Shown here: positions 5,907 to 64,000 of the stretch, one piece after another | Layout: each line of letters starts with the position of its first letter | Numbering within the stretch: position 1 is the stretch's first letter | Source of the DNA: Actinomyces sp. S6-Spd3 | GTDB taxonomy: Bacteria; Actinomycetota; Actinomycetes; Actinomycetales; Actinomycetaceae | Assembly: GCF_000758755.1 (NCBI RefSeq) | Contig: NZ_JRMV01000276.1 | Span: 62,001 to 126,000 of the forward strand | Length of the DNA: 64,000 bases | Reading direction: 5' to 3' | Translations under genes and position numbers: made by a program | Notes under the pieces: model-generated | The model's database searches: none | Seen by the model: the letters and a program-made list of their open reading frames with translations, nothing else | Told to the model about the DNA's origin: nothing

Positions 5907-6542
5907 ATGGCATCAGATAAGGCTCTGAGCTGGGTATTTGCAGAAGAGTTTGTCGAGGAAAACGACATCCTTGCCCAAGCTCGCGAGACTGCCACCGATT
6001 TAGGTGCTGAGCCCGTTTCAACCGGAGTCGGCGCTACCCTTCGTCTCCTTGCCGCAACCTGCGGAGCAAAAGCCGTCCTCGAAATCGGAACCGGAGCGGG
6101 AGTATCTGGCCTGTGGCTCCTCCAGGGAATGTCGGCCGACGGTGTCTTGACCACGATCGACCACGAGGTCGAGTTCCACAAGTACGCACGTCGCGCATTC
6201 ACAGCAGCGGGCATTCCCTCCCAACGCACCCGCCTCATCGCGGGTCGGGCTTTGGATGTTCTTCCCCGCATGGCCGCACGCGGCTACGACATGATGGTGA
6301 TCGATGCTCCTGCAGATGAAATTCCGGACTACCTCGATCATGCACTTCGGGTCCTACGCCCCGGCGGACTCATTGTGATCATTCATGCTCTGTGGCACGA
6401 CCAGGTTGCGGATCCTGCCCAGCGCGATGAACAGACCGTCATGATGCGAGAGCTGGCAAAGGTTCTTGCTTCTTCAGAGCAGTTTGTTCCGGCAATGCTT
6501 CCCGTCGGCGATGGACTGCTTGCAGCAGTTAAGCGCATCTGA
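5907..6542 (+). CDS. SAM-dependent O-methyltransferase (class I, Rv1220c-like)
   Basis: The protein has 211 residues. A SAM-binding Rossmann fold is indicated by VLEIGTGAGVSGLWLLQGM (motif I, about residue 60), then LTTIDHEVEFHKYARRAF and MMVIDAPADEIPDYLDHALRVLRPGG. The pattern fits the catechol-O-methyltransferase-like family, whose actinobacterial members have unassigned small-molecule acceptors. The ATG at 5907 is preceded by GCGGAGGAC, which is better than the upstream TTG at 5874. It is a single gene between the mrp terminator and the trp leader. Confidence 0.85.
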   Translation: MASDKALSWVFAEEFVEENDILAQARETATDLGAEPVSTGVGATLRLLAATCGAKAVLEIGTGAGVSGLWLLQGMSADGVLTTIDHEVEFHKYARRAFTAAGIPSQRTRLIAGRALDVLPRMAARGYDMMVIDAPADEIPDYLDHALRVLRPGGLIVIIHALWHDQVADPAQRDEQTVMMRELAKVLASSEQFVPAMLPVGDGLLAAVKRI

Positions 6543-6763: not shown

Positions 6764-8389
6764 ATGACACACGCGGACACGCCACACGTGATCACACGTG
6801 AGGTGCGCTATCACAGCGACGGCGGCAAGCTTCTTGCTGATCTATGCAACCAGGGCTTGCTTCCTCGCGCAGCCTCGGGGCACCCGACGAAGGTTGTCTT
6901 ACTCGACAGTGCTGACATCGCCTCCAAGCAGCACTTGACAACGATTGCTCTACTTGAAGCCAGCGCGTCTATCCAATGCGATGGCGATCAGGTCCGCGTG
7001 ACATCGACGCATCCTGTCGACGGCCCCGCTGCAATCCAAAGCGTATGCGAGGCTCTCCCCCACGCGCTTCTCGAACGCACCGAGACCGACGCTTTGTTGA
7101 CCTTGCCTTCTCTTCGTGAAGACGAGGCCGATGAGGAGACCCGCCTCAAGCAGCGCGCAACCATGGAACCCTTGCGTATCCTGACCGACACTCCCATCGA
7201 TCATCCGCACCTTCCTTTGGTCGCCGGGGCTGTCGCCTTTGATTACCTGGCAACCTATGAGTCCTTGCCCGAGGTCGCCCTCGGTTTCAACTCCTGCCCT
7301 GACTATCTCTTTTACTTAGCGCGCATCATTTTGGTGGTTGATCACCCCTCTCAAAGCGCCCAGTTAGTTGGCGCTTCCCTCGATCCCATTTCCCTTGAGC
7401 AGCGCATGAACGCGCTTGCCGAGGCGATCGACGCCGCACCCGAAAGCGCGATGGAATCCACGGCCTCGGAAATTGAGAAACAAGAAGGCGCACAGCCCCT
7501 CATTGCCCGCCCGACGATCTCCGATAGTGACTTCGCCGAGCTCGTCACCGTCATGCAAGAGCACATTGCCGCAGGCGATATCTATCAGGTTGTTCCCTCG
7601 CGCGGTTTCATCGCTGAATGCGCCGATGCGCTGACCAGCTATCGTTTCTTGCGCGATGAGAACCCCAGTCCCTACATGTTCTACATCGGGACTGAAGACT
7701 TCGAACTTTTCGGAGCTTCCCCCGAGTCCTCGCTCCTGCATTCGGCAAAGACCCACACCGTCGCAATTCGTCCAATCGCAGGCACGCGTCCTCGTGGTTT
7801 TGCTCCCGATGGCAGCATCGATCATGAACTCGATATCCGACTGGAGCTTGAGCTTCGTTCGGACGCAAAAGAAGTCGCAGAGCACGTCATGTTGGTCGAT
7901 CTCGCACGAAATGACGTTGCCCGAGTTTCCAAGCGCGGCACCCGCAGAGTCGAACAGCTTCTGCGCGTGGATCGTTACTCGCGCGTCATGCATTTGGTTT
8001 CCGAAGTAAGCGGCACCTTGGCCGAGGATCTTCATCCCCTGGATGCTTTCCGCGCGTCCATGACCATGGGAACACTAACCGGTGCCCCCAAGCTTCGCGC
8101 TGCTGAGCTTATTCGCACCTACGAAGGACTGAGGCGAGGTTCTTACGGCGGGGCAGTCGGGTATCTTCGCGGCGACGGCGAACTCGATACCTGCATCGTC
8201 ATCCGTTCGGCTTTCGTCAAAGACGGACACGCGATCGTGCAGGCCGGCGCCGGTGTTGTTGCAGATTCCGTCCCTGCTCGCGAGGCCGAAGAAACCGTTC
8301 ACAAGGCAAGCGCAGTTTTGCGCGCCCTAGCTGCCTCGGCACACCGTCCGCTGGTGATTGCAGCGAGCGCAGAAGAAGGTGAATTCTAA
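6764..8389 (+). CDS. trpE: Anthranilate synthase component I
   Basis: The 541-residue protein converts chorismate to anthranilate with ammonia delivered by TrpG. The N-terminal half includes LLDSAD (about residue 46), corresponding to the Trp feedback-binding element usually written LLES, so feedback inhibition is likely kept. The catalytic chorismate-binding half has PIAGTRPRG, LVDLARND, MGTLTGAPK and YGGAVGYL in order. The ATG at 6764 has AAGGACGG upstream; an earlier in-frame ATG at 6704 lies inside the attenuator hairpin and is rejected. It is the first structural gene after the attenuator and is separated from trpG by one base. Confidence 0.97.
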   Translation: MTHADTPHVITREVRYHSDGGKLLADLCNQGLLPRAASGHPTKVVLLDSADIASKQHLTTIALLEASASIQCDGDQVRVTSTHPVDGPAAIQSVCEALPHALLERTETDALLTLPSLREDEADEETRLKQRATMEPLRILTDTPIDHPHLPLVAGAVAFDYLATYESLPEVALGFNSCPDYLFYLARIILVVDHPSQSAQLVGASLDPISLEQRMNALAEAIDAAPESAMESTASEIEKQEGAQPLIARPTISDSDFAELVTVMQEHIAAGDIYQVVPSRGFIAECADALTSYRFLRDENPSPYMFYIGTEDFELFGASPESSLLHSAKTHTVAIRPIAGTRPRGFAPDGSIDHELDIRLELELRSDAKEVAEHVMLVDLARNDVARVSKRGTRRVEQLLRVDRYSRVMHLVSEVSGTLAEDLHPLDAFRASMTMGTLTGAPKLRAAELIRTYEGLRRGSYGGAVGYLRGDGELDTCIVIRSAFVKDGHAIVQAGAGVVADSVPAREAEETVHKASAVLRALAASAHRPLVIAASAEEGEF

Positions 8390-52660: not shown

Positions 52661-55600
52661 CTACTCTGAGCGCAGGGCTTCGACAGGATCTTGACGAGAT
52701 GCCCTCGAGGCCGGAATCAAGCCCGCGATCACGGTCAAACCAACCGAGATCGCAATCAAGATTGCCGCGGTGAGCGGAGAAAGTTGAGCAATGTTGCTCA
52801 CCTGGAAGCCCTGCTCCGCGATCGCATTAACCATGCCGCAGATACCGTAGGTCACAGCAACACCGATGATGCCCGCAATCAGGCCCTCGATAAAGGTTTC
52901 CGCGTTGAATACCGCAGAGACATTGCGCTTTGAGGCACCGATCGATCGAAGAATGCCGATTTCTTTCTTGCGTTCAAGAACTGAAATATAGGTGATGATC
53001 GCAATCATGATCGAGGACACGACCAGTGAGATCGATACGAAGGCGATGAGAAGCCACGAGATCACGTTGACGATCCTCGTCACTGAGCTCATGAGTACGC
53101 CCATGATATCGGTGTAGGTGATGACCTGGTCGGACTTGCCCGCACTCTCCTTGTCAGCGTTGTACTGGTCCAAGACGGCCTTGACGGAATCCTTGTCCTT
53201 GAAGGACTTCGGGTAAATCGAGATGCTGCTGGGGGACTTCAGGTCAGCCCACCCCAGATCGCGCAGGTTGGTCTCAAGCGTGGGGACGTTCGTTGAGAAC
53301 ATCGTCGCCATCAAGGCGGCAAGGGACTTCTCATCAAGATTCGACGAGAAGGCCGACGCCATGGCCTCGGGATCGAAATGGAAGGCGCTGCTCATATTCG
53401 TAGCGAATTGGCTCATTGTTGCGCTGATCTGCTGGCCAATTGTCTGCGAAAGCTGAGTCATCATCTGGGTCATGGCCGTCGCCATGGTCTCTTGCAGAAC
53501 CTGGCCGATCGCCGCGGAGACCCCGCGCATGAGATTGCCACCAAGCTGGGCGGCGATCTGCGCCGAAATCTGGTTCGCAAGTTCCGTTGACACCTGAGAG
53601 GCAACAGAAGCCAGTGCCGGGTCATCCCCAAGTGCCGCTTGCAAGTTCGTCATTAGCTTCTCGCGGTCAACAACTTGGTCAGAAGAGACGGCGGTATTGA
53701 TCTGTTGAATGACCGAGGGCTGAGAGAAGTACTCAGAGACCAGCGTGGAAAAGTCCGTGGAGCCACCCGCAGCAATCTGGTTTTGCGCGTAGTCCTGGAA
53801 TCCCTGAAGGATCTGACTTGCCTGCGAACTTAAGTACGTTCCTGCCGTGTCCTTCACGGCTCCATCTGCCAGCGTCTTGCGGATAATCGCAGGGAAATCA
53901 ACATTTTGCAGCTGAGGAACGCTCTTGGTGAGCTCTCCCAGATTGAGCTTCGAGGGATCAATCTGCACCGCTGAACCGTCGGCGGGAACAAGCTGCGAAA
54001 GATCAATATTCGACAAGTCCATTCCCGACAAATCAAGGTTCGAGAAGTCAAGGCTAGACAGGTCCATTCCGCTGAAATCTAGGCCCGAGAGGTCCATTTG
54101 CATGGCCGATGGGTCGATAGAGAAAGCCGCAGAAAGCTTGTTTTGATCGACCGTAAACAAGCTGGACATATCAAAACCACTGGAACGGTCCTTCGAGGAA
54201 TCCGCAAGTTCCTGGAAAGTCTTACCCGTGAACACGTCGGTCTTCGGGTTCGCCCGCTGATCCTTAACGATCTGACTATCCTCGGCCTCGCGAATGATCT
54301 GGCGGGTCAGCTCAGGGGTGTAGGCGAGGCCCTGACGCAGCGCTCCCCCATGCGAGGAATTCGGCTTCACGATTGCGCTAATGCGAAGCTCTTGGCCCTG
54401 GTCGATCAACTTCTTCATGAATTCTTTATCGGAAGAATGATCCGACCAGACCTTGTAGTTTTCGTCCCAGGTGTACTTTGCGGCTGCGTTGATGCGCTTG
54501 TATTTAATCCCCAAAATCTTGTCGTAATCGTACGAGGCCGCGGGGGCGTCGCTTGCCGAGGGGGACGGAGTCGGGGTGGCTGAGTTCTTTTCGCCGATGG
54601 TCCCCGAGTAGTACTGACGCATCAGTTCGTCGAATTCTTTGTGATCCTTCAGCCCGAGGACATACTCCATCAGGTTCGACATATTGCCGTCTTCATCAAT
54701 AACAAGGACGACTTCGGACGCTGAAGTTGGCCAGTGGCCGGCAAGAACATCGTAGGAGGAGGTGTAAAGAGAGGATTCCTGCGGCATTTGGTAGAAGGCG
54801 TTAGTAGCCATCATCGAGGACATGGGACTTCCGCGCATGCCCGTTTCCATCCGATTCATTGCCTGATCGGGACTGACTTGGATATTGTCCTTCGAGGTAT
54901 CGGCCTGGAAAATCTGCGGGGTGACGTCGTAGTCGTATTCGATGGCGTTGACGAAAGAGTTGACATTCCCGCCGTTCCCATCAAGGAATGCCTTCAAGGA
55001 GGCCAAGTCATTCGTCTTCGCATCGCGAATATTGTCTGCAAGAGTCCTCAGCTTGGAGACCCCGACTTTGCCGTCGCTTGGCTTCTCACTGCTAGCGGCT
55101 TCGACTTGCGCAGACAGGGCGCTGGACATGTCCATCCCGCTCTTTTGAATGGTCAGCGGGTATGCGCCCAGGGTTTCTTCTTCTGTTTGGGCGATGTACG
55201 CATTCGTGCCGTTCGCCAGAGCCAAAATCGCGGCGATACCGATGATTCCAATAGACCCCGCAAAGGAGGTCATCAGGGTACGGCCCTTCTTCGTCATCAA
55301 GTTATTGAAAGACAGCGAAAGCGCAGTCAGGAAGCCCATCGAGGTACGGCGCACTGGCTTGGCCTCGCGAACTTCTTCGGTACCCGGAACGAAAGGACGT
55401 GAATCGGCGACCACTTCACCATCCGCGAGCTCGACAATGCGGGTTGCGTATTGGTGCGCAAGCTCCGGGTTGTGGGTCACCATGATGACCAGACGGTCTT
55501 GAGCAACATCGCGCAGGAGGTCCATGACCTGAACGCTGGTCTTGGAGTCAAGAGCACCGGTCGGTTCATCGGCCAGGAGGATTTCAGGATCGTTAATCAG

Positions 55601-56065
55601 CGCTCGTGCAATGGCGACGCGCTGCATCTGCCCGCCAGAAAGCTGCGAGGGCTTCTTTCCTACGTGCTCGGCCAGCCCGACGCGTTCCAAGGCTTCCATC
55701 GCGCGCTTGCGGCGTTCGCCTCGGGAGACACCGGAGAGGGTCAGCGCCAACTCAACGTTGGACAAGATGGTCTGGTGCGGGATCAGGTTGTAGGACTGGA
55801 AAACGAAGCCGATGCGGTTGTTGCGGTAGGCGTCCCAATCGCGGGCTTTGTAATCCTTCGTTGAGATTCCATCGATGACCAGGTCACCGCTTTGGAAATG
55901 GTCAAGGCCGCCAACGACGTTGAGCATCGTCGTTTTACCTGAACCCGACTGACCTAAAATTGCGACGAATTCACTATCCCGGAATGCGACTGAAACGTCA
56001 TTGAGCGCAACTTGACGCAGATTCGCAGTTTCGTAGATCTTGACGATATTTCGCAGTTCGAGCAC
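52661..56065 (-). CDS. Giant MacB/FtsX-type ABC transporter with pentapeptide repeats in its extracellular domain
   Basis: The 1134-residue protein has an N-terminal ABC cassette (1-230) with [21 protein letters not shown] and [12 protein letters not shown], of the LolD/MacB type. One membrane helix follows near residue 270-290. A very large extracellular region (about 290-1000) comes next, and three C-terminal helices of the FtsX fold (about 1003-1130) include [17 protein letters not shown]. Residues 657-691 are seven consecutive pentapeptides of the type xDLSx or xDFSx. The extracellular part also holds Ala/Gln-rich helical stretches. Usual MacB is about 650 residues. The start is a GTG at 56065 with AAGGA upstream. 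The role may be mechanotransmission or export; the substrate is unknown. Confidence 0.9.
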
Positions 56066-56169: not shown

Positions 56170-58038
56170 CTAGTGGTCGCTGGACTTTCCCGAAACCAAG
56201 AGGATTTCTTCATTATCGAGGCGGGCGAGGGCGCCCTCGAGGGCCGCTGAAGAGAAGATTCCCTCATCGCGAGCCTGAAGAAGAGCGTCACGCTGAGCGT
56301 GAATGGCTTCAAGAGCCAGTTCGCGAATCTGATCGCGCGTGAAGGAACGCTCGACTTCCTCTCCGCTCATTTCCACGGGAGTGGCCTCGTTTTCCCCATC
56401 GGTGTCAGGGAGAGGCTCGCTCACAGCCCCCGAAGAAGGAGAAGATTGCAGGTCGACAACATTGCCCAGGCGTGACAGGGTTCGTGAAACTCCAGCAGAC
56501 AAGAGTGTCTGAGCATCAACCTCCTTGATTGCTTGTGCCAGAGCCGTATCCACGAGTGCGGAACTCATGACCTGTCGAAGTTCTTCGCGTTCTTCTTCAC
56601 TGATATCGGCAGAGGCCATCTTGGGCTTGATCAAGCGGATCAGCCACGGCAGCGAAAGCCCTTGAATAACCAGCGCACCAGATGCGATGAAGAGGGCGAT
56701 CGTCAGAAGGAAGGACCGCATGGGCGCTGCGGCGGAAATCGTTTGTGCTGCGGCAAGAGTGATGGCTCCGCGCATCCCAGACCAGATAATGACGCTGGCT
56801 TCACGCGGCCCAAGCGGCTCTTTTTCAAAGTAATCAATGTCGGATCGGCGCACTGCGTGTTGCCTCTCGGCAATTTTGAGGCGGCGTCGCCAGCGGGCCA
56901 TGGTTTTGATCCACTGTTCTTCGCTGAGGTTTCGGCTTGCCAGAACCTCGCTGTCCACGGTGCAGGCCTGCGCCATTCGCTGCGCGAAGGCTTCGAGGCG
57001 CCCAGCCTGGGCCTCGTAGCGCCTCTTTCGGTGCTTGCTGCGATGGTCGAGCCAAGTGAGCATGAGTGCGATGAAGAGTGCGCGGATCACCATGATCAGG
57101 CTGCCTGCAATGACGGCGATCACGGCGGCTCGTACCAATCCACCGCCGTCTCCATCGGCGTCTTCGATGATGCCAAAAGCTTGAAGGCCCATAGCCAAGA
57201 AGATCCCACTCTCAAGCATGAGAGTCATGGTCGACCAATTTTGCTGCGAAAAACGCCTATTTTGCGCAGAAATCATGCCTGCGCGACGACCGGAAACGAC
57301 AAGCCCAGCAACGACTGCGGCAACCAATCCAGAGCCGCCCACGTGCTCGGCGGGGATCGAAGCAATGAAAGGCATTGCGAAGGAAAAGACCGTATCTGTC
57401 GACGGATCTTTGATGATCGAACGGATCCGAACGCCCACTTCGCCGACGATTAAACCGACAACAATGGCGATGCCAAGAGCAACGAGGACGCGCCCCGTGA
57501 GGAGTGCGGGATTGAGAGCGTCGTTGTCGGAGGCAAGACCCGCGTTCATCGCCGCAGCAAGAAGCACCAGTGAAGTGGCGTCGTTGAAAAGGCCTTCGCC
57601 TTCAAGCACTGTAATGATGCGGTGCGAGACGCCGCTGCGCTTGGCAATAGTGATGGCGACCGCGTCGGTGGGAGATAAAACGGCTCCCAGCGCTACGCCC
57701 CACGCCAGTGAAATCTGCGGAACCATCCAGTTAATGAGGAAACCAATGGCGAATGAGGAGATAAACACCAGCGGAATAGCAAGCATTGCCACGGCTTGCA
57801 TTTCTCGGCGGAAATCCATCGTTGGCATACGCACAGCCGCTGAAAATAGCAGGGGTGGAAGAATAATTTCCAAGATGATGTGCGGCGCGATTTCGATGGC
57901 TCCAACCTGTGGGAGGAAACCGATCGCAAGTCCAACGCCGAGCAGGATCAGTGGTGATGCGACGCCAACTTTGGGGGCAATAAACTGCGAGGCCACAATA
58001 ATGAGCATCCCCAACAGCGCGATCATCAACGGTTCCAT
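56170..58038 (-). CDS. CPA1 family Na+(K+)/H+ antiporter
   Basis: The 622-residue protein has about 12 membrane helices in the first 415 residues. Family motifs are LEIILPPLLFSAAVRM, ALGAVLSPTDAVAITI, VLEGEGLFNDATSLVLL and VIWSGMRGAITLAAAQ. A cytoplasmic segment between about residues 335 and 410 is charged, and the C-terminal 150 residues are soluble and acidic. It exchanges monovalent cations for protons at the plasma membrane. The ATG at 58038 is divergent from ogt, 68 bases away. Confidence 0.93.
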   Translation of the reverse strand: MEPLMIALLGMLIIVASQFIAPKVGVASPLILLGVGLAIGFLPQVGAIEIAPHIILEIILPPLLFSAAVRMPTMDFRREMQAVAMLAIPLVFISSFAIGFLINWMVPQISLAWGVALGAVLSPTDAVAITIAKRSGVSHRIITVLEGEGLFNDATSLVLLAAAMNAGLASDNDALNPALLTGRVLVALGIAIVVGLIVGEVGVRIRSIIKDPSTDTVFSFAMPFIASIPAEHVGGSGLVAAVVAGLVVSGRRAGMISAQNRRFSQQNWSTMTLMLESGIFLAMGLQAFGIIEDADGDGGGLVRAAVIAVIAGSLIMVIRALFIALMLTWLDHRSKHRKRRYEAQAGRLEAFAQRMAQACTVDSEVLASRNLSEEQWIKTMARWRRRLKIAERQHAVRRSDIDYFEKEPLGPREASVIIWSGMRGAITLAAAQTISAAAPMRSFLLTIALFIASGALVIQGLSLPWLIRLIKPKMASADISEEEREELRQVMSSALVDTALAQAIKEVDAQTLLSAGVSRTLSRLGNVVDLQSSPSSGAVSEPLPDTDGENEATPVEMSGEEVERSFTRDQIRELALEAIHAQRDALLQARDEGIFSSAALEGALARLDNEEILLVSGKSSDH

Positions 58039-58106
58039 ACATATAGTTTACGGGGGACGCATGTATATGTCTGGGGCGTGCATATCCGTCGCCGCTGTGC
58101 CAGTCT

Positions 58107-58718
58107 GTGAGCATGCGTATTGCGAGCATCGCGAAGGACTCCGAGCTGGCGCTGTGTTCCTTCGACACTGAACTTGGCGCTATTACCTGCGCTGCCTCCG
58201 GTGGAGCCTTAAGCGCGCTGTGGATGAGCGGGCAGCGCTTCTTTGGTTACCCTTTTGGGATTTCCGAGGCCAAGGCCTCCTCCCACGTTCCACTCTCCAT
58301 CCGGGGTGACTTGCACGCGTGGACACCAGACGGTAGCACAGTCAGCGATCAGAATGCCGCCGTCTTGGAACAGGCCTACCAGTGGACGCAGGACTTTCTC
58401 GCGGGTGCAAACCCCGATCATTTCGCGATTCCCCTGGCAACCTATGGAACGGACTTCCAGCTGCGGGTGTGGAACGCACTTCTGGATATCCCCTATGGAG
58501 AGTGCGTGACCTACTCGGATCTCGCTCGAAAGGTCGGCTCACCGCGCGCGTACCAGGCGGTTGGGAGCGCGGTTGGGCACAACCCACTCTCGCTCATCGT
58601 CCCCTGTCACCGCGTGGCCTCGGCCTCGGGCCAGGTCCACTACGGAGGAGGACCGGCGCGCAAGCTTTACTTACTCTCACTGGAGTCGGGCGAAGGTATA
58701 ATAAACAGCCATCATTGA
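58107..58718 (+). CDS. ogt: Methylated-DNA-protein-cysteine methyltransferase
   Basis: The 203-residue suicide repair protein removes alkyl groups from O6-alkylguanine and O4-alkylthymine. The active site Cys is in IVPCHRVASASG; DIPYGECVTYSDLARKVG and YQAVGSAVGHNPLS are the DNA-binding helix-turn-helix parts. Starts at 58107 (GTG) or 58113 (ATG) are both possible. The last codons (GIINSHH) are unlike the usual end of the family, and the TGA at 58716-58718 lies inside the -35 box of the following promoter, suggesting the downstream cassette was joined here. Confidence 0.93.
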   Translation: MSMRIASIAKDSELALCSFDTELGAITCAASGGALSALWMSGQRFFGYPFGISEAKASSHVPLSIRGDLHAWTPDGSTVSDQNAAVLEQAYQWTQDFLAGANPDHFAIPLATYGTDFQLRVWNALLDIPYGECVTYSDLARKVGSPRAYQAVGSAVGHNPLSLIVPCHRVASASGQVHYGGGPARKLYLLSLESGEGIINSHH

Positions 58719-58762
58719 CGTACGTAAGAATCTACGTATAATTACACGTAAGATTTCACGTA
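58715..58762 (+). promoter_or_regulatory. Near-consensus promoter overlapped by two tandem palindromic operators
   Basis: TTGACG (58715-58720) and TATAAT (58737-58742) are 16 bases apart, a very strong vegetative promoter. The spacer is the palindrome TACGTAAGAATCTACGTA (58721-58738; arms TACGTA and TACGTA). A second copy, ACGTAAGATTTCACGTA (58746-58762), lies 24 bases further on, covering the expected start of transcription. The copies agree at 14 of 17 positions and each is an inverted repeat, so a dimeric repressor is expected to close the promoter. GGAGGG and the ATG at 58777 follow at once. A second TATAAT lies at 58697-58702 within ogt. Confidence 0.85.
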
Positions 58763-58776
58763 CTTTGGAGGGTGTT

Positions 58777-59928
58777 ATGGCGCTCAAGCCTATCGAACCA
58801 CAGCCCGGCAGCGACCGAGACCCGGCCAACTTCGTCGGCCGTCACGAGGTGAGTACCCGAGCGCGCCAACGCCTCCAAGTAGGAGCAAACCTCCTCCTGA
58901 CAGACCCAAGGCGCATGGGCAAGACCTTCTGGATGCACGCTTTCGCGGCACAAGAAAAACGCTTCCACTGCTACTTCATCGACTACGAAGGCGTATTCAC
59001 GGTCAACGACTTCCTGATCCGCACCGCCGATGCACTCATTCAGGGCGGAAAGCTTCCCTCACGGGCATTCCAAAAACTTAAAACCATCTTCGATAACTGC
59101 GATATCGAGATCTCAAGCCCCATCACCATTAAGAGCTATCACCGTCAAACATCTCCACACGTCCTACTCACCGACATTCTCAGCACCCTCGACGGGGAAG
59201 AAAACGACATTATTCCACTGGTCATGATGGATGAAGTCCCCATGGCGGTGAATAACATTGCCGAGCGCGAAGGAGTAGGAGCTGCCGAAGAAATCCTCCA
59301 AACCCTGCGCGCACTTCGTCAAAAGACCACACGAGTCCGATGGATTGTCACAGGATCGATCGGCTTCCATCACGTCCTCAGTAAAGCCAACATGACCCAG
59401 GGAGTCTTGAACGATCTTGAATCATTACCACTGGGTCCGCTCACCCATGACGAGGCCGACGAACTTGCACGCCGCCTGCTCCTAGGAGTTGGACATGAGC
59501 CCAGCGACGAGGTCTCACGCGCACTTGTCGACGTGAGCGGGGGGATCCCATTCCTCCTACATAAGCTCGTGGGAGCGCTCGCGCACGGCCGCTATGCCAC
59601 ATTTACGCCCAGCGATGTCCGCGTATGCTTCGAAGATTTCATTGACGACCCAGACGAATTCCGTTGGTTCGAGCACTACCTCACTCGCGTCGCACCGCAT
59701 TACGGTGAGCGAGCACGCATCGCGGATCAGATTCTGCAAGAGACTCTGTCTGAGACGAATGAGTGGGTCCCCATCGATTCTTTGACTCCAGGTGAGAAGG
59801 TAGCCGACGTCATTGAAGATCTCATCAAGGATCACTATTTGGAGCGCCGAGGCCGCTCAGTTCGTTGGCGTTATCCCGCACTCCAATACATTTGGGCGCG
59901 TAAGAAGGGGGTATGGGACCGCCGATGA
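58777..59928 (+). CDS. STAND/archaeal-type P-loop ATPase with C-terminal winged helix (first gene of two-ATPase operon)
   Basis: The 383-residue protein has an N-terminal FVGRHEVSTRARQRL. Walker A TDPRRMGKTFW (about residues 42-52) lacks the first Gly but fits the PRRxGKT of archaeal-type ATPases. Walker B VMMDEVP lies near 148 and the sensor-like WIVTGSIGFHH near 190. Residues about 300-375 look like a winged helix (IADQILQETLSE...LERRGRSVRWRYPALQYIW). There is no signal or membrane segment. I use the ATG at 58777, 4 bases after GGAGGG, not the TTG at 58765. It overlaps the next ATPase gene by 4 bases. Function unknown; possibilities are a DNA-binding switch or a defence NTPase. Confidence 0.85.
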   Translation: MALKPIEPQPGSDRDPANFVGRHEVSTRARQRLQVGANLLLTDPRRMGKTFWMHAFAAQEKRFHCYFIDYEGVFTVNDFLIRTADALIQGGKLPSRAFQKLKTIFDNCDIEISSPITIKSYHRQTSPHVLLTDILSTLDGEENDIIPLVMMDEVPMAVNNIAEREGVGAAEEILQTLRALRQKTTRVRWIVTGSIGFHHVLSKANMTQGVLNDLESLPLGPLTHDEADELARRLLLGVGHEPSDEVSRALVDVSGGIPFLLHKLVGALAHGRYATFTPSDVRVCFEDFIDDPDEFRWFEHYLTRVAPHYGERARIADQILQETLSETNEWVPIDSLTPGEKVADVIEDLIKDHYLERRGRSVRWRYPALQYIWARKKGVWDRR

Positions 59929-61490
59929 GTACCGTTCCGCTTGCCTGCTTTACTCCCTCACTCATGCCTGAGGAGGTTCTCGAGCGCGTGTGTGTCGCAC
60001 GTGAACCGGTTCTCAAGACCCTCGAGAAGCGCGTGAAAAAGCTTGGACACACACCGAGCCCCAACCACACTCTTCTCGTTGGCCCTCACGGAGTGGGCAA
60101 AACGCACGTCATTTCCTTGGCTTATCACCGCTGCACACGGCTCATTGCCAGCCAAAATGATCCTTCTGTCCGTATCGCTCGCCTTCCCGAGGCCCCATGG
60201 ACGATCACGTCATATGGGCGCCTTCTTGCTGCGATTCTCGATCGGGTTTCCCCCGCCGCTACGAGAAACACGGATGAGTCAACCCTAGAAGCACAGCTTC
60301 GCGACGCCCTGCGAACCTACGGACCTATTGTGGTCTTCGCTGAAAACGTTGACCATATCTTTGTTGCTCTTGGAGAAGATGGACAGCAAAAACTGCGAAG
60401 CTTTCTTCAAACCGAGACGAGAATCCTCATCATTGGAAGCGCCGCTCGTCTCGATCGCAGTCTTTCTGAGTCCGCTTCACCTTTCTTCGGATTCTTCGAC
60501 ACGATTCGGCTCGCGCCCTTCTCCCCTGAAGACGCGCGCGAAATGCTCACTTCTTTGGCGCGAGAATCAGACAATTCGGAACTAGCCGATCATCTTTCAT
60601 CCACTGAAGCGATGGCTAGCATCCACGCAATCACACACCTCACGGGCGGCACGCCTCGAGTGTGGGCAGTGCTGGGAAATGCGCTGAACACCGCAGGTTT
60701 TACCGATCTGAAAACTTTACTTCTTACATGTCTTGACAGCTTCACACCCTATTACTATGAGCAGCTGGCTCAGCTCTCTCCGTTACAGCGCCTCGTGATC
60801 TCTGAACTTGCCGCAGCCAACCGTCCGCTCCCAGTTAAAGATCTTGCTGAGCGTGTGGGTGCAGAACAGCGCTCTGTGGCTAAAGCGGTGAGCGACCTCA
60901 GCGAACGAGGGTGGACGAAACCCGTTTCTACTGTTTTCACGGATCTACTTGACCAGCGCCGTAGCTACTACGACTTCGTAGACCCTCTTACCCGGATCAT
61001 TCTTCAGCTCAAGGATTCGGACACGCTTTTATTGCCTCGCATCGTGATTTTCCTTGAGACATGGTTTGGCACCGAAGGACTGACCGCCTCTTCCTCGTTT
61101 GAATTGCTTGGAGCGGTCGAAGATGCACTCGCATCGGCTGCACAGGGGGACGCGGAGCCGATGATGGCACTCCCCAGCACCGCGCGCGAGGCGATCGAAC
61201 TCAAAGTGTGTGATGTGGAGGGGATTTCCTCGGCACGCCTGAATCTCCTTGCGAAAGCCGCGAAAAGGGCCGATCTTCTTCCCTCCAAAGACATCATCGA
61301 ATGGGTCGCCCGCGCGGAACGTCTTGACCAGGAACTCCAATCCCCCCAAAGCCGGCTCACGTTGGTACGTTGGCTTGCCGCCTTAGGGAACTTTGACGAG
61401 GCCGAGGCCGCCTTGGGGACGATTACTTCCACACAGGAGGCTCAGGAAGGCGCGCGGGCACTGAGCGACGCTCACCAAGCCCGCGACTAG
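59925..61490 (+). CDS. AAA/Orc1-like P-loop ATPase with winged helix (second gene of two-ATPase operon)
   Basis: The 521-residue protein has Walker A VGPHGVGKTHV (about residues 50-60). The Walker B place reads VVFAENVDHIF (about 135-145), with Glu-Asn-x-Asp in place of the usual Asp-Glu. LIIGSAARLD (sensor 1) and LTGGTPRVWAVLG (sensor 2 type) follow. Residues about 283-345 form a clear winged helix (LQRLVISELAAANRPLPVKDLAERVG), as in Orc1/Cdc6-like proteins. The last 180 residues are helical, with Ala/Leu-rich repeats like TPR units. ATG overlaps the first ATPase stop (ATGA). It has no recognisable effector domain. Confidence 0.85.
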   Translation: MSTVPLACFTPSLMPEEVLERVCVAREPVLKTLEKRVKKLGHTPSPNHTLLVGPHGVGKTHVISLAYHRCTRLIASQNDPSVRIARLPEAPWTITSYGRLLAAILDRVSPAATRNTDESTLEAQLRDALRTYGPIVVFAENVDHIFVALGEDGQQKLRSFLQTETRILIIGSAARLDRSLSESASPFFGFFDTIRLAPFSPEDAREMLTSLARESDNSELADHLSSTEAMASIHAITHLTGGTPRVWAVLGNALNTAGFTDLKTLLLTCLDSFTPYYYEQLAQLSPLQRLVISELAAANRPLPVKDLAERVGAEQRSVAKAVSDLSERGWTKPVSTVFTDLLDQRRSYYDFVDPLTRIILQLKDSDTLLLPRIVIFLETWFGTEGLTASSSFELLGAVEDALASAAQGDAEPMMALPSTAREAIELKVCDVEGISSARLNLLAKAAKRADLLPSKDIIEWVARAERLDQELQSPQSRLTLVRWLAALGNFDEAEAALGTITSTQEAQEGARALSDAHQARD

Positions 61491-61517
61491 CACATCTAAA
61501 GCCAGCCCAAGACGCAA

Positions 61518-62852
61518 CTACTTGTTCTCGGTAGAGTTCGGTAAGGCCTCGGCAATCTGCTGCGCAACCAAGTCCTCGTCGACGGGAAGCTGAGTGCGCG
61601 CATAGGCGGCGGCGTCATCTTGGGCATCGACAATTTCCTCAGCAACCGAACTGGCATCACGGCGCAATTCGACACCGTCAACGACGGAAGCACGCGCAAG
61701 CGTACGGGCCTCTAACCGGTCCTCGTCCGTGAACTCGAGATCATCAGCATGCTTTCGAACAAGAAGGCGAATAAGCTTGCGGCGCAGGTTTTCCTCGCGC
61801 AGGACTGCAGAACGCTCACGCAGCCAGCCGACTGCCAAAATAATTAGCAGAACAACACCCAACCAACCGATGACCGGATACATAACCCCGATCAGCTTCT
61901 TGAATCCCATGAACGAAGCCGCGTAGCCCGCTGCTACTACTCCGATGAGCACCAGACGCATTCGTGAGGTCGACCCGCCAGAAAAACGACGAGCTGTCGA
62001 ATAGAACAGGGAAAAAGCGGTGTTGTAGATCAGCGCAAAAATCACAAGGGTATATCCGAAAGCGAATAGCGGATGAATCGAGCGTGCTATCTCAAGAGCC
62101 GGGACGTTTACATCCCAGATACGATCCACGTTCAGATACAGAGCAAGCGCATCCGCACCGAGGACAAGGGCGATCAGCAAGCCACCGATACGACCGGCAC
62201 GACGCGCCTCACCAATGCGCAAGATTGAGCCACCGAGGACGAAGGCCATTGCAATACCACAGACAACACACAGCGCGAAATAGTTAATCGTCGCCAGCCA
62301 CAGATTCGGCAGTGCGGGAGTGACATTACGCGCGGCTGCGTCAAGTTCAGCAATGCCCGCATGCGGAGTCACCAATGAATAAATGGTCAAAACGGCAATC
62401 GCAATCATAATGATGGGCGTGAACACCCCGATCACATTCATAATCCGGTCGAAGTCCAGGAAAGCCGTAAGAATGACAAGCAGGGCACACAGTAAGCTGC
62501 CCGCCCAAGTAGGCACTCCGAATTGCTGCTGGAGGTTCGCACCGGCCCCTGCCAGCATCACGAAGCCCGTAGTGAAGGCAGAGAAAATCAGCACCACATC
62601 AATGACGCGACGCAAAACGGGATGAGTGATGCGTTCGAAGACCTCGTCGTGATTGTCTGAGCGAAAGTACGAGCCAAGCTGCAGGGCAACGACGCCGAAA
62701 ATCACGTTCAGCACACCCAAGGCTACGATTCCGATCAAACCCTTGGCGCCAAAAGCAAGGAAATATTGCAGGAGATCTTGGCCGCTGGCCAAACCTGCGC
62801 CGACTATCACTCCCACATATGCAAAAGCCACCGAGAGGTATTTCTTAGTCAT
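61518..62852 (-). CDS. YkvI family membrane protein, copy 1
   Basis: The 444-residue protein has about ten membrane helices (YVGVIVGAGLASGQDLLQYF at the start, then MLAGAGANLQQQFG and NLWLATINYFALCVVCGIAM). A cytoplasmic C-terminal tail of about 105 residues follows, rich in Arg, Glu and Ala. The start of the fold (GVIVGAGLASGQ) is that of APC-superfamily transporters and the YkvI branch. Substrate unknown. The ATG at 62852 has GGAAGAAG upstream; 12 upstream codons are dropped. It converges on the two-ATPase operon and is a tandem paralogue of the next gene. Confidence 0.85.
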   Translation of the reverse strand: MTKKYLSVAFAYVGVIVGAGLASGQDLLQYFLAFGAKGLIGIVALGVLNVIFGVVALQLGSYFRSDNHDEVFERITHPVLRRVIDVVLIFSAFTTGFVMLAGAGANLQQQFGVPTWAGSLLCALLVILTAFLDFDRIMNVIGVFTPIIMIAIAVLTIYSLVTPHAGIAELDAAARNVTPALPNLWLATINYFALCVVCGIAMAFVLGGSILRIGEARRAGRIGGLLIALVLGADALALYLNVDRIWDVNVPALEIARSIHPLFAFGYTLVIFALIYNTAFSLFYSTARRFSGGSTSRMRLVLIGVVAAGYAASFMGFKKLIGVMYPVIGWLGVVLLIILAVGWLRERSAVLREENLRRKLIRLLVRKHADDLEFTDEDRLEARTLARASVVDGVELRRDASSVAEEIVDAQDDAAAYARTQLPVDEDLVAQQIAEALPNSTENK

Positions 62853-62896
62853 TGTCTTCTTCCGATTGCCAATAAATATCACGGCCAAGGCCTATT

Positions 62897-62914
62897 TTCA
62901 CCGTACAGGGTGAA
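62897..62914. promoter_or_regulatory. Inverted repeat upstream of YkvI copy 1
   Basis: TTCACC and GGTGAA face each other over six bases (GTACAG), 45 bases before the copy 1 ATG and between the two YkvI genes. Perfect 6-base arms suggest an operator; no regulator can be assigned. Confidence 0.35.
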
Positions 62915-62989
62915 CTACTAGGCCGCAGAATTATGTCGATTGAATCACAAAAGAAGAAAGAAAGCTACGAGTTCGTTCGAATGGGGAAA

Positions 62990-64000
62990 CTACTTGCTGT
63001 CCGTGGAATCCGGCAAGGCCTCGGCAATCTGCTGCGCAACCAAGTCCTCGTCGACGGGAAGTTGAGTGCGCGCATAGGCGGCGGCGTCATCGTGGGAAGC
63101 GACGATCTGTTCCGCAATCGAGTCGGCGTCGCGGCGCAGCTGCGTTCCTTCGACGACCGAGGCACGGGCGAGTGTCTGCACCTCGGCGCGGTCCGCATCT
63201 GTGTACTCAAGGCCATCGGCATGCTTGCGCACCTGCACGCGGATCAGCTTGCGACGCAGATTTTCTTCGCGGATTACCGAGGCGCGGCGGTGCAGCCACG
63301 CGATCGCAAGGACCACGAGGAGTGCAATCCCCAGGTAGCCGATGATCGGATACATGCCGCCAACCAATTTCTTAAATCCCAGCAGGGAGTTCGCATAACC
63401 CGCAGCGGTCACCCCTGTCAGAATCACTCGCATGCGCTGATCCGAACCGCCAGAGAAGCGTCGAGCCGTTGAGTAGAACAGGGAAAAGACCGTGTTGTAG
63501 ATCAGCGCGAAAATGATGAGCGTATACAAGAGCGCGAAAGCCGGATGAATGCGCCGGGCGATCTCCAACGTCGGCACTCCCACATCCCAGATGCGATCCA
63601 TGTTGAGGAAAAGCGTCACCGCATCGGCTGCAATAACGAGAGCAATCAGCGCACCGCCCAAGCTCCCGGCCTTGCGTGCCACATCGATGCGCAGGACGGA
63701 ACCTCCCAAAACGAAAGCCATCGCAATACCGTTGACCACGCAGAGTGCGAAGTAGTTGATTGTCGAGAGCCACAAGTTCGGAAGCGCAGGGGTAACATTC
63801 TGCGCGGCAGCGTTGAGCTCGGTGATGCCTGGATGCGGGCGCGCAAGCGAGTAGATCGTCAAAATACTGATGGCAACAATGATCATCGGGGTGAAGACAC
63901 CGATGACTTTCATGATGCGATCAAAATCAAGGAAGGCAGTGACGACAACCAAAACCGCGCAGATCGCACTTCCCGCCCATGCCGGGATTCCAAACTGTTG
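62990..64000 (-). CDS. YkvI family membrane protein, copy 2, partial (5' end beyond the window)
   Basis: 337 codons are open to the window edge, starting inside the protein at QQFGIPAWAGSA, which corresponds to QQFGVPTWAGSL of copy 1. About seven membrane helices and the C-terminal tail are present. The two proteins are closely similar throughout and end in EALPDSTDSK and EALPNSTENK. The 3' ends share a 77-base block differing at one base. It is about 137 bases upstream of copy 1 on the same strand. As with copy 1, the substrate is unknown. Confidence 0.88.
   Translation of the reverse strand, partial: QQFGIPAWAGSAICAVLVVVTAFLDFDRIMKVIGVFTPMIIVAISILTIYSLARPHPGITELNAAAQNVTPALPNLWLSTINYFALCVVNGIAMAFVLGGSVLRIDVARKAGSLGGALIALVIAADAVTLFLNMDRIWDVGVPTLEIARRIHPAFALLYTLIIFALIYNTVFSLFYSTARRFSGGSDQRMRVILTGVTAAGYANSLLGFKKLVGGMYPIIGYLGIALLVVLAIAWLHRRASVIREENLRRKLIRVQVRKHADGLEYTDADRAEVQTLARASVVEGTQLRRDADSIAEQIVASHDDAAAYARTQLPVDEDLVAQQIAEALPDSTDSK

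What the first reader, a model, noticed from the sequence alone, without database searches (positions are those of the whole stretch)
58715..61490. Uncharacterised two-ATPase operon under a strongly repressible promoter
Two overlapping genes (ATGA) encode P-loop ATPases of different types, each with a winged-helix region, and nothing else. The promoter is close to the vegetative consensus and is covered by two copies of a palindromic operator. Such a design, strong but tightly shut, is common for toxin, defence or stress-response modules. I know no described system made of exactly this pair. The second ATPase has an unusual Walker B (ENVD) and a helical repeat tail that could sense a ligand or protein. 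Inference: an autoregulated switch or defence module in which one ATPase is regulator and the other effector.
Basis: partly seen in the sequence, partly recalled or inferred. Interest (0 to 1): 0.8.

Follow-up and report, generated by a model that had tools for sequence, protein, structure and literature searches.

The report
Self-repressed pair of related ATPases
Two overlapping genes make a pair of distantly related ATP-binding proteins behind their own array of repeated operator sites; the pair appears to move between bacteria as a unit, and on a few plasmids its distant relatives head operons of anti-phage genes, so it looks like a control switch for bacterial immunity that has not been studied.

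Summary
The operon is real and under selection. ORF1 (58777-59928, 383 aa) and ORF2 (59925-61490, 521-525 aa) overlap by ATGA. They are distant homologues of each other (hhalign 97.9%), not two different types. P1 keeps a normal Walker B (DE). P2 has a conserved, probably hydrolysis-poor EN, a MarR-like winged helix and a variable tail. The operator is four ACGT boxes exactly 12 bp apart (two 18-bp palindromes) laid over the promoter. The perfect array occurs once in the (draft) host genome and is kept in related operons whose flanks differ. Gene pair and operator travel together, and the window's copy is an insertion at an ogt/transporter junction that is empty in 11 genus relatives. Distant homologues on Moraxella plasmids have a different operator of the same design and are followed by known or candidate defence genes (Avs4/PD-Lambda-4; PRTase/CARF/ORC). 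A lone P2 on a Mycobacterium avium plasmid overlaps a PD-T4-6-like kinase gene. Best reading: a mobile, autorepressed ATPase switch, with P2 the operator-binding subunit, of the kind that controls immune operons, standing alone here. DNA binding, repression, trigger and defence function are inferred. The open-literature searches listed no description of the pair.

The parts
58715..58720 (+). -35 hexamer TTGACG, overlapping the stop codon of the upstream ogt gene
   Evidence: TTGAC-type hexamer at the array in 7 of 10 aligned loci by eye
58737..58742 (+). -10 hexamer TATAAT, 16-bp spacer
58721..58738 (.). operator palindrome 1 (ACGT boxes at 58722 and 58734), from just after the -35 into the -10
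58745..58762 (.). operator palindrome 2 (ACGT boxes at 58746 and 58758), downstream of the -10; 24 bp from palindrome 1
58767..58772 (+). ribosome-binding site GGAGGG
   Evidence: read directly from sequence
58777..59928 (+). P1: P-loop ATPase (weakly ATPase_2/AAA_14-like), 383 aa; canonical Walker B; C-terminal region aligned with the winged helix of P2
58906..58926 (+). P1 Walker A, PRRMGKT (residues 44-50)
   Evidence: R45, R46, G48, K49 invariant in 13 of 13
59230..59235 (+). P1 Walker B DE (D152, E153)
   Evidence: both invariant in 13 of 13
59925..61490 (+). P2: AAA_16-type ATPase with MarR-like winged helix and helical tail; start at 59925 (ATGA overlap) or 59913
60081..60104 (+). P2 Walker A, GPHGVGKT (residues 57-64 counted from 59913)
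   Evidence: G60, G62, K63, T64 invariant in 15 of 15
60342..60347 (+). P2 degenerate Walker B, E144-N145
   Evidence: N145 in 14 of 15 rows (D in L038), E144 in 13 of 15 (D in L038, L036); the more distant Segatella P2-like protein, not in the alignment, has DE
60771..60932 (+). P2 winged helix (residues 287-340), proposed operator-binding domain

Best explanation
A mobile, self-repressed, two-subunit ATPase switch. P2 is the operator-binding subunit: its MarR-like winged helix binds the tandem 18-bp palindromes as dimers side by side, covering the promoter, and keeps a strong promoter shut. Its nucleotide pocket (intact Walker A, EN in place of DE) would hold ATP with little hydrolysis, and its fast-changing tail (long and TPR-rich in other Actinomyces-family relatives, short here) would read the trigger. 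P1 is the hydrolysis-competent homologue that would form a mixed complex with P2 and set or release its state. Trigger or change of nucleotide state frees the promoter and the pair is made in bulk. On a few plasmids the same kind of unit heads operons with anti-phage genes, so derepression would switch on immunity; in the window's lineage the unit stands alone, either as a complete small system or as a control cassette without cargo. Shown here: genes, homology, operator, co-travel, insertion, purifying selection, defence neighbours of distant relatives. Inferred: which subunit binds DNA, repression, P1-P2 contact, nucleotide control, trigger, immune role.
For: Pair: in the family search both genes are in 9 of 213 genomes, adjacent in all 9; P1 alone in 1 (broken, with a P2 fragment), P2 alone in 1 (with a 65-aa P1 remnant). 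P1 is directly followed by P2 in the 3 class hits (L051-L053), in both places of G656 (one P2 cut by the contig end) and on Segatella, Moraxella and Methylomonas plasmids, P2 being an 85-aa fragment in the last. Operator: shared invariant positions in 10 aligned loci; ACGT boxes at -55, -43, -31, -19 from the P1 start in window, L055, L044 and L046; one perfect array in the genome; operator without intact P1 at L050 and as fossils at L103/L104. Moraxella: three tandem palindromes AACTATA-N4-TATAGTT or near over a TTGACT...TAATAT promoter (promoter by eye), half-site repeat reached in 0 of 1000 shuffles (7-mer; 5 and 1 of 1000 for 5- and 6-mers), perfect palindrome only at this promoter in the three loci. 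M. avium lone P2: 20-bp palindrome just before the gene. P1 and P2 homologous. Insertion: ogt directly beside the transporter in 11 of 14 genus genomes that matched the transporter and lack the module there. Selection: dN/dS 0.08 (P1) and 0.20 (P2), window against L055. Defence: Moraxella P1-P2 followed by an overlapping Avs4/PD-Lambda-4_A gene (5.6e-127) or by dUTPase_2, PRTase-CE, ORC-CDC6-like and CARF genes; M. avium P2 overlapping a PD-T4-6-like kinase (8.7e-96).
Against: No cargo gene in Actinomyces: downstream genes differ and, by recall of their sequences, look like housekeeping. The defence neighbours belong to homologues only 18-25% identical, few in number (two cargo types in three Moraxella plasmids, one M. 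avium plasmid), and kinase models are broad. In the word-repeat test 13 of 20 upstream regions did not reach 5 of 1000 at any word length, among them L035, L037, L038, L051-L054, L061, L064 and L065; 18-bp palindrome tests of single loci are mostly weak. P2 where P1 is lost has a higher dN/dS (0.36, L048 against L050). The Segatella P2-like protein has DE, so EN is not universal. P1 has no family match to a winged helix but aligns with that of P2, so P1 could bind the operator too. AlphaFold models were too poor to use (pLDDT 43 and 51). Single 16-bp palindromes gave no regulon above the reversed control in the own genome (14 vs 14), though G155 had 15 vs 6.
Confidence: 0.55

Rival explanations
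1. The pair is itself a complete anti-phage or toxic system: the P2 tail senses an invader protein, P1-P2 assembles like a STAND immune receptor and harms the cell or the phage; the operator only keeps it low.
For: Fast-evolving P2 tails, TPR-rich in L043; sporadic, inserted, and decayed in at least four genomes (G021, G032, G035, G036); stands alone in Actinomyces with no cargo.
Against: No nuclease, TIR, protease, HEPN or membrane effector domain in either window protein by Pfam or PADLOC; in one Moraxella plasmid a separate known effector follows the pair.
Confidence: 0.25
2. A DNA-maintenance pair (ORC/Cdc6- or TniB-like ATPases) acting in replication, segregation or transposition, with autoregulation.
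For: Weak ORC/Cdc6 and TniB matches of P2.
Against: TniB below cut-off (21.3 of 22.4 bits); no transposase, Rep or Par match among five window neighbours scanned; not found in 203 of 213 family genomes; only one perfect array in the genome.
Confidence: 0.1
3. The operator belongs to a host regulator and the pair is only one of its targets.
For: Neither protein has been shown to bind DNA; arrays in family genomes that are not at the module were not all examined.
Against: One perfect array in the genome and none at one mismatch; in the printed part of the family list, 7 of 9 genomes with zero-mismatch arrays have it at the module or its remnants, the other two were not examined; the operator letters differ between Actinomyces and Moraxella relatives.
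Confidence: 0.07

Closest known systems
CapK-CapS (kinase plus wHTH repressor upstream of diverse immune operons; PMC13373217, abstract and passages read)
   Same: Two adjacent genes at the head of diverse immune operons, autoregulation, winged-helix repressor on palindromes overlapping promoters.
   Different: CapK is an anti-sigma-type kinase and CapS a STAS-wHTH protein; here both are homologous P-loop ATPases with no kinase or STAS match, and the Actinomyces units have no downstream immune operon.
ATPase_2 (PF01637) and related STAND ATPases; solved relative 2qen
   Same: P1 RRxGKT Walker A, DE Walker B; weak match to 2qen (8.2e-5). STAND kinship is from recall of these motifs.
   Different: P1 is below the Pfam cut-off (14.3 of 33.2 bits) and is tied to a second ATPase and an operator.
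AAA_16/NACHT-type proteins with kinesin-light-chain TPRs
   Same: P2 passes AAA_16 (34.8 of 32.6 bits); L043 carries TPR_12/TPR_10 repeats; Moraxella P2 passes NACHT.
   Different: MarR-like winged helix after the ATPase; Walker B EN; long TPR tail absent in the window.
BREX BrxB inactive STAND and BrxC/BrxD ORC-Cdc6 ATPases (PMC12839542, passages read)
   Same: Active and inactive STAND/ORC-type ATPases, some with winged helices, working in defence.
   Different: No BREX protein among the five window neighbours scanned with Pfam; BrxB lacks Walker motifs, P2 keeps Walker A.

Membership tests
ATPase_2 (PF01637) for P1 | Pfam gathering score 33.2 | tested here: not met
   14.3 bits, E 0.037; Segatella homologue 30.3 bits
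ATPase_2 (PF01637) for P1 | Walker A with RRxGKT/S and acidic Walker B (motif from recall) | tested here: met
   R45 R46 G48 K49 D152 E153 invariant in 13 of 13
AAA_16 (PF13191) for P2 | Pfam gathering score 32.6 | tested here: met
   34.8 bits, E 2.9e-8
MarR-like winged helix for P2 | Pfam MarR_2 gathering score 27 | tested here: inconclusive
   window 18.6 bits, L043 24.8, L053 36.2
CapK-CapS | GHKL-type kinase plus STAS-wHTH repressor | tested here: not met
   no kinase or STAS match in either protein
CapK-CapS | located at the head of diverse immune operons | tested here: inconclusive
   seen for Moraxella and M. avium homologues, not for Actinomyces units
TniB/TnsC transposition ATPase | TniB gathering score 22.4 and a nearby transposase | tested here: not met
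   21.3 bits; no transposase among five neighbours scanned
Known anti-phage system (PADLOC 2023) | model match | tested here: not met
   P1 none; P2 only weak Csa3/CARF3 matches, E about 1e-3
Autorepressor | binds and represses its own promoter | not testable with these tools
   needs binding and reporter assays

The most novel reading that the evidence does not exclude
A new class of exchangeable immune control cassette in bacteria: a paired active/degenerate STAND-type ATPase switch, autorepressed through phased palindromes whose sequence co-evolves with P2, placed in front of unrelated anti-phage effectors (Avs4, PRTase/CARF/ORC systems, a kinase) and also moving alone. Repression would be gated by nucleotide state rather than by proteolysis (CapP-CapH, recalled) or phosphorylation (CapK-CapS).
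Probability: 0.35. Interest if true: 0.75.

Novelty: new variant of a known kind. Interest (0 to 1): 0.55.

Why it matters
How immune operons are kept silent and switched on is known for only a few regulators. A self-contained ATPase pair that carries its own operator and recurs in front of unrelated anti-phage genes would add a nucleotide-driven mode of control, and the perfect operator array gives an easy bioinformatic and biochemical handle: binding of P2 to about 48 bp of DNA is directly testable.

Tried and rejected
Fusion of P1 and P2 in G549 (one 738-aa ORF) was a false lead: the genes lie in different frames. A regulon was looked for and not found in the own genome. Phage records gave no match for P1, P2 or Moraxella P1 and viral contigs no confirmed relative for five queries, so the module is not phage-borne as far as seen. 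Rfam: nothing at gathering score in 58000-63000. A second operator before the Moraxella cargo: two ACTATA half-sites lie near there (12112, 12177 of L063) but the hexamer occurs elsewhere too; left open. Weak mad8, Csa3/CasR and IniR matches were rejected as too weak. The distant ATPase_2-like proteins of G637 and G857 match P1 over profile positions 11-196 only and have no P2 beside them; they were not counted as family members. Palindrome shuffle tests per locus were mostly not significant and are not used as evidence beyond conservation across loci. L120 (G143) was dropped from the empty-site count: the ogt and transporter matches are both truncated at the junction. Only one of the two M. 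intracellulare plasmid hits was opened. Paper searches (listings) showed no description of this pair; only open-licence PMC papers were searched.
Full report
Where it is. The window is part of contig C276 of a 2.09-Mb draft genome, 96.5% complete; among three named relatives found, the nearest is Actinomyces marseillensis, 99% identical in P1. Between an O6-methylguanine-DNA methyltransferase gene (PF01035; here ogt, name from recall) and a convergent gene of a membrane transporter (no Pfam match at 0.001; function from recall) lie two genes, P1 (58777-59928) and P2 (59925-61490), overlapping by ATGA.

What the proteins are. P1 (383 aa) has a PRRMGKT Walker A and a DE Walker B; R45, R46, G48, K49, D152 and E153 are invariant in 13 of 13 rows. 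It matches Pfam AAA_14, AAA_35 and ATPase_2 only below cut-off and the solved ATPase 2qen weakly (8.2e-5). P2 (525 aa) passes AAA_16, has a MarR-like winged helix (below cut-off in the window, above it in L053) and EN where an active ATPase has DE: N145 in 14 of 15 rows, E144 in 13 of 15. The more distant Segatella P2-like protein has DE. The profiles of P1 and P2 align over 303 columns, into the winged-helix region, with probability 97.9%. That P2 hydrolyses ATP poorly is inference. Of 15 aligned P2 rows nine are 605-903 aa, four (L037, L038, L052, L053) are 369-389 aa without a tail, and the window and L055 are 525 and 521 aa. The one Actinomyces-family P2 scanned besides the window's (L043) has a kinesin-light-chain-type TPR tail, and the A2 profile matches kinesin light chains; the Moraxella tail gave no TPR match. 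Both genes are under purifying selection: dN/dS 0.08 and 0.20 between window and L055.

The operator. Four ACGT boxes lie at 58722, 58734, 58746 and 58758, exactly 12 bp apart, as two 18-bp palindromes 24 bp apart over the promoter. The perfect array occurs once in the genome; none has one mismatch; the next two have two, one of them the same array shifted. In 10 aligned loci, one of them a broken copy, the array is conserved although upstream flanks differ. The boxes stand at -55, -43, -31, -19 from the start of P1 in window, L055, L044 and L046, and L048 has six boxes. In the family scan with up to one mismatch, 68 of 213 genomes had a match, many of them probably coding background, as the reversed control also matches; the printed list was cut after G137. 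Within the printed part, zero-mismatch arrays occur in nine genomes: five at the module or its broken or P1-less copy (G005, G007, G026, G035, G036), two at fossils (G021, G032: remnants of P2 or P1), and two (G104, G106) not examined. In a word-repeat test of 20 upstream regions, seven reached at most 5 of 1000 shuffles at some word length (window, L055, L043, L044, L046, L048 and Moraxella L036); thirteen did not.

It travels. Family search at E 1e-10: P1 in 10 of 213 genomes, P2 in 10 of 213; both, adjacent, in nine. The P1-only genome (G035) has broken pieces of both, the P2-only genome (G036) a 65-aa P1 remnant. In evenly drawn class samples P1 is in 4 and P2 in 5 of 394, shared by four including the own genome; G368 has P2 only. 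In the phylum sample, a P1 profile hits 4 of 396: own, G656 twice with P2 adjacent, and two distant proteins without P2. In the genus sample, 17 of 34 genomes matched the transporter. Three hold the module beside it; of the other 14, 11 have ogt within about 110 bp of the transporter (distance between alignment ends), an empty site; in G143 both genes are truncated at the junction; two have only a paralogue of about 40% identity. G155 has this empty site although it carries the module elsewhere (L043, L112). The window's copy is thus most simply an insertion.

Distant relatives and defence. On Moraxella osloensis plasmids P1-P2 is followed in one case, by an overlapping gene, by a 1248-aa Avs4/PD-Lambda-4_A protein (L062; 5.6e-127), and in two others by dUTPase_2, PRTase-CE, ORC-CDC6-like and CARF genes and a methyltransferase (L036, L063; the cargo was scanned in L063), with an annotated qatD upstream in L036. 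In L063 P1 is interrupted by an IS5 element. Their promoter carries three palindromes of the form AACTATA-N4-TATAGTT or near, 27 bp apart, around TTGACT...TAATAT: the Actinomyces design with other letters. The perfect palindrome occurs only there in the three loci, twice in each. A lone P2 on an M. avium plasmid has a 20-bp palindrome before its start and overlaps a PD-T4-6-like kinase gene by 4 bp. The Segatella pair has a WYL regulator upstream; Methylomonas P1 with an 85-aa P2 fragment lies about 1.4 kb from a type I restriction gene on the other strand. Against this: L037 and L054, P2 without P1, show no clear operator, these relatives are only 18-25% identical, and Actinomyces units have no defence cargo, though L045 has a HEC-01A/B-like pair about 2.5 kb upstream.

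How it probably works. The operator stays with P2 where P1 is lost (L050), and its letters differ between P2 lineages, so P2 most likely binds it (inference; P1 is not excluded). Tandem palindromes over the promoter suggest cooperative repression. P1, the homologue with an ordinary active site, probably forms a mixed complex with P2 and sets its state. The known systems that work most like this are regulatory pairs at the head of immune operons such as CapK-CapS (PMC13373217; abstract and passages read), but the proteins are unrelated, so it is not a member. Rivals are a self-sufficient immune receptor pair (0.25), a DNA-maintenance pair (0.1) and a host-owned operator (0.07).

Limits. AlphaFold models were poor. 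No binding, repression or phage data exist here. The defence link rests on four plasmids. Literature was checked only in the open library, (listings), with passages read in PMC7159879, PMC12839542 and PMC13373217; none of what I saw described this pair.

Noticed in passing
L103 (G021:C4) near 6437 and L104 (G032:C1) near 6848: Intact operator arrays remain where the ATPase genes have decayed to fragments, in what looks by recall like the same ribosomal-protein locus as L048 and L050: operator fossils.
   Followed up: partly
window 61095-61490 against L055: The P2 tail is far closer to L055 (dS 0.10) than the P2 core (dS 1.18): a recombination mosaic within P2.
   Followed up: partly
L062:10921-13016: After the Avs4/PD-Lambda-4_A gene comes a second large STAND-like gene (NPHP3_N match) with no PADLOC match in the part searched.
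   Followed up: no
G000:C274:44751 and G161:C9:21095: A perfect palindrome ACGTGATCGATCACGT occurs singly in both genomes, perhaps the site of another regulator.
   Followed up: no
window 52661-56065: One 1134-aa ORF joins an ABC ATPase, a long middle part with a pentapeptide-repeat match and an FtsX permease domain.
   Followed up: no
window 61518-63952: Two tandem copies of the transporter gene, about 75% identical.
   Followed up: no
L045:3617-5418: HEC-01A/HEC-01B-like candidate defence pair about 2.5 kb upstream of P1 in G014.
   Followed up: no
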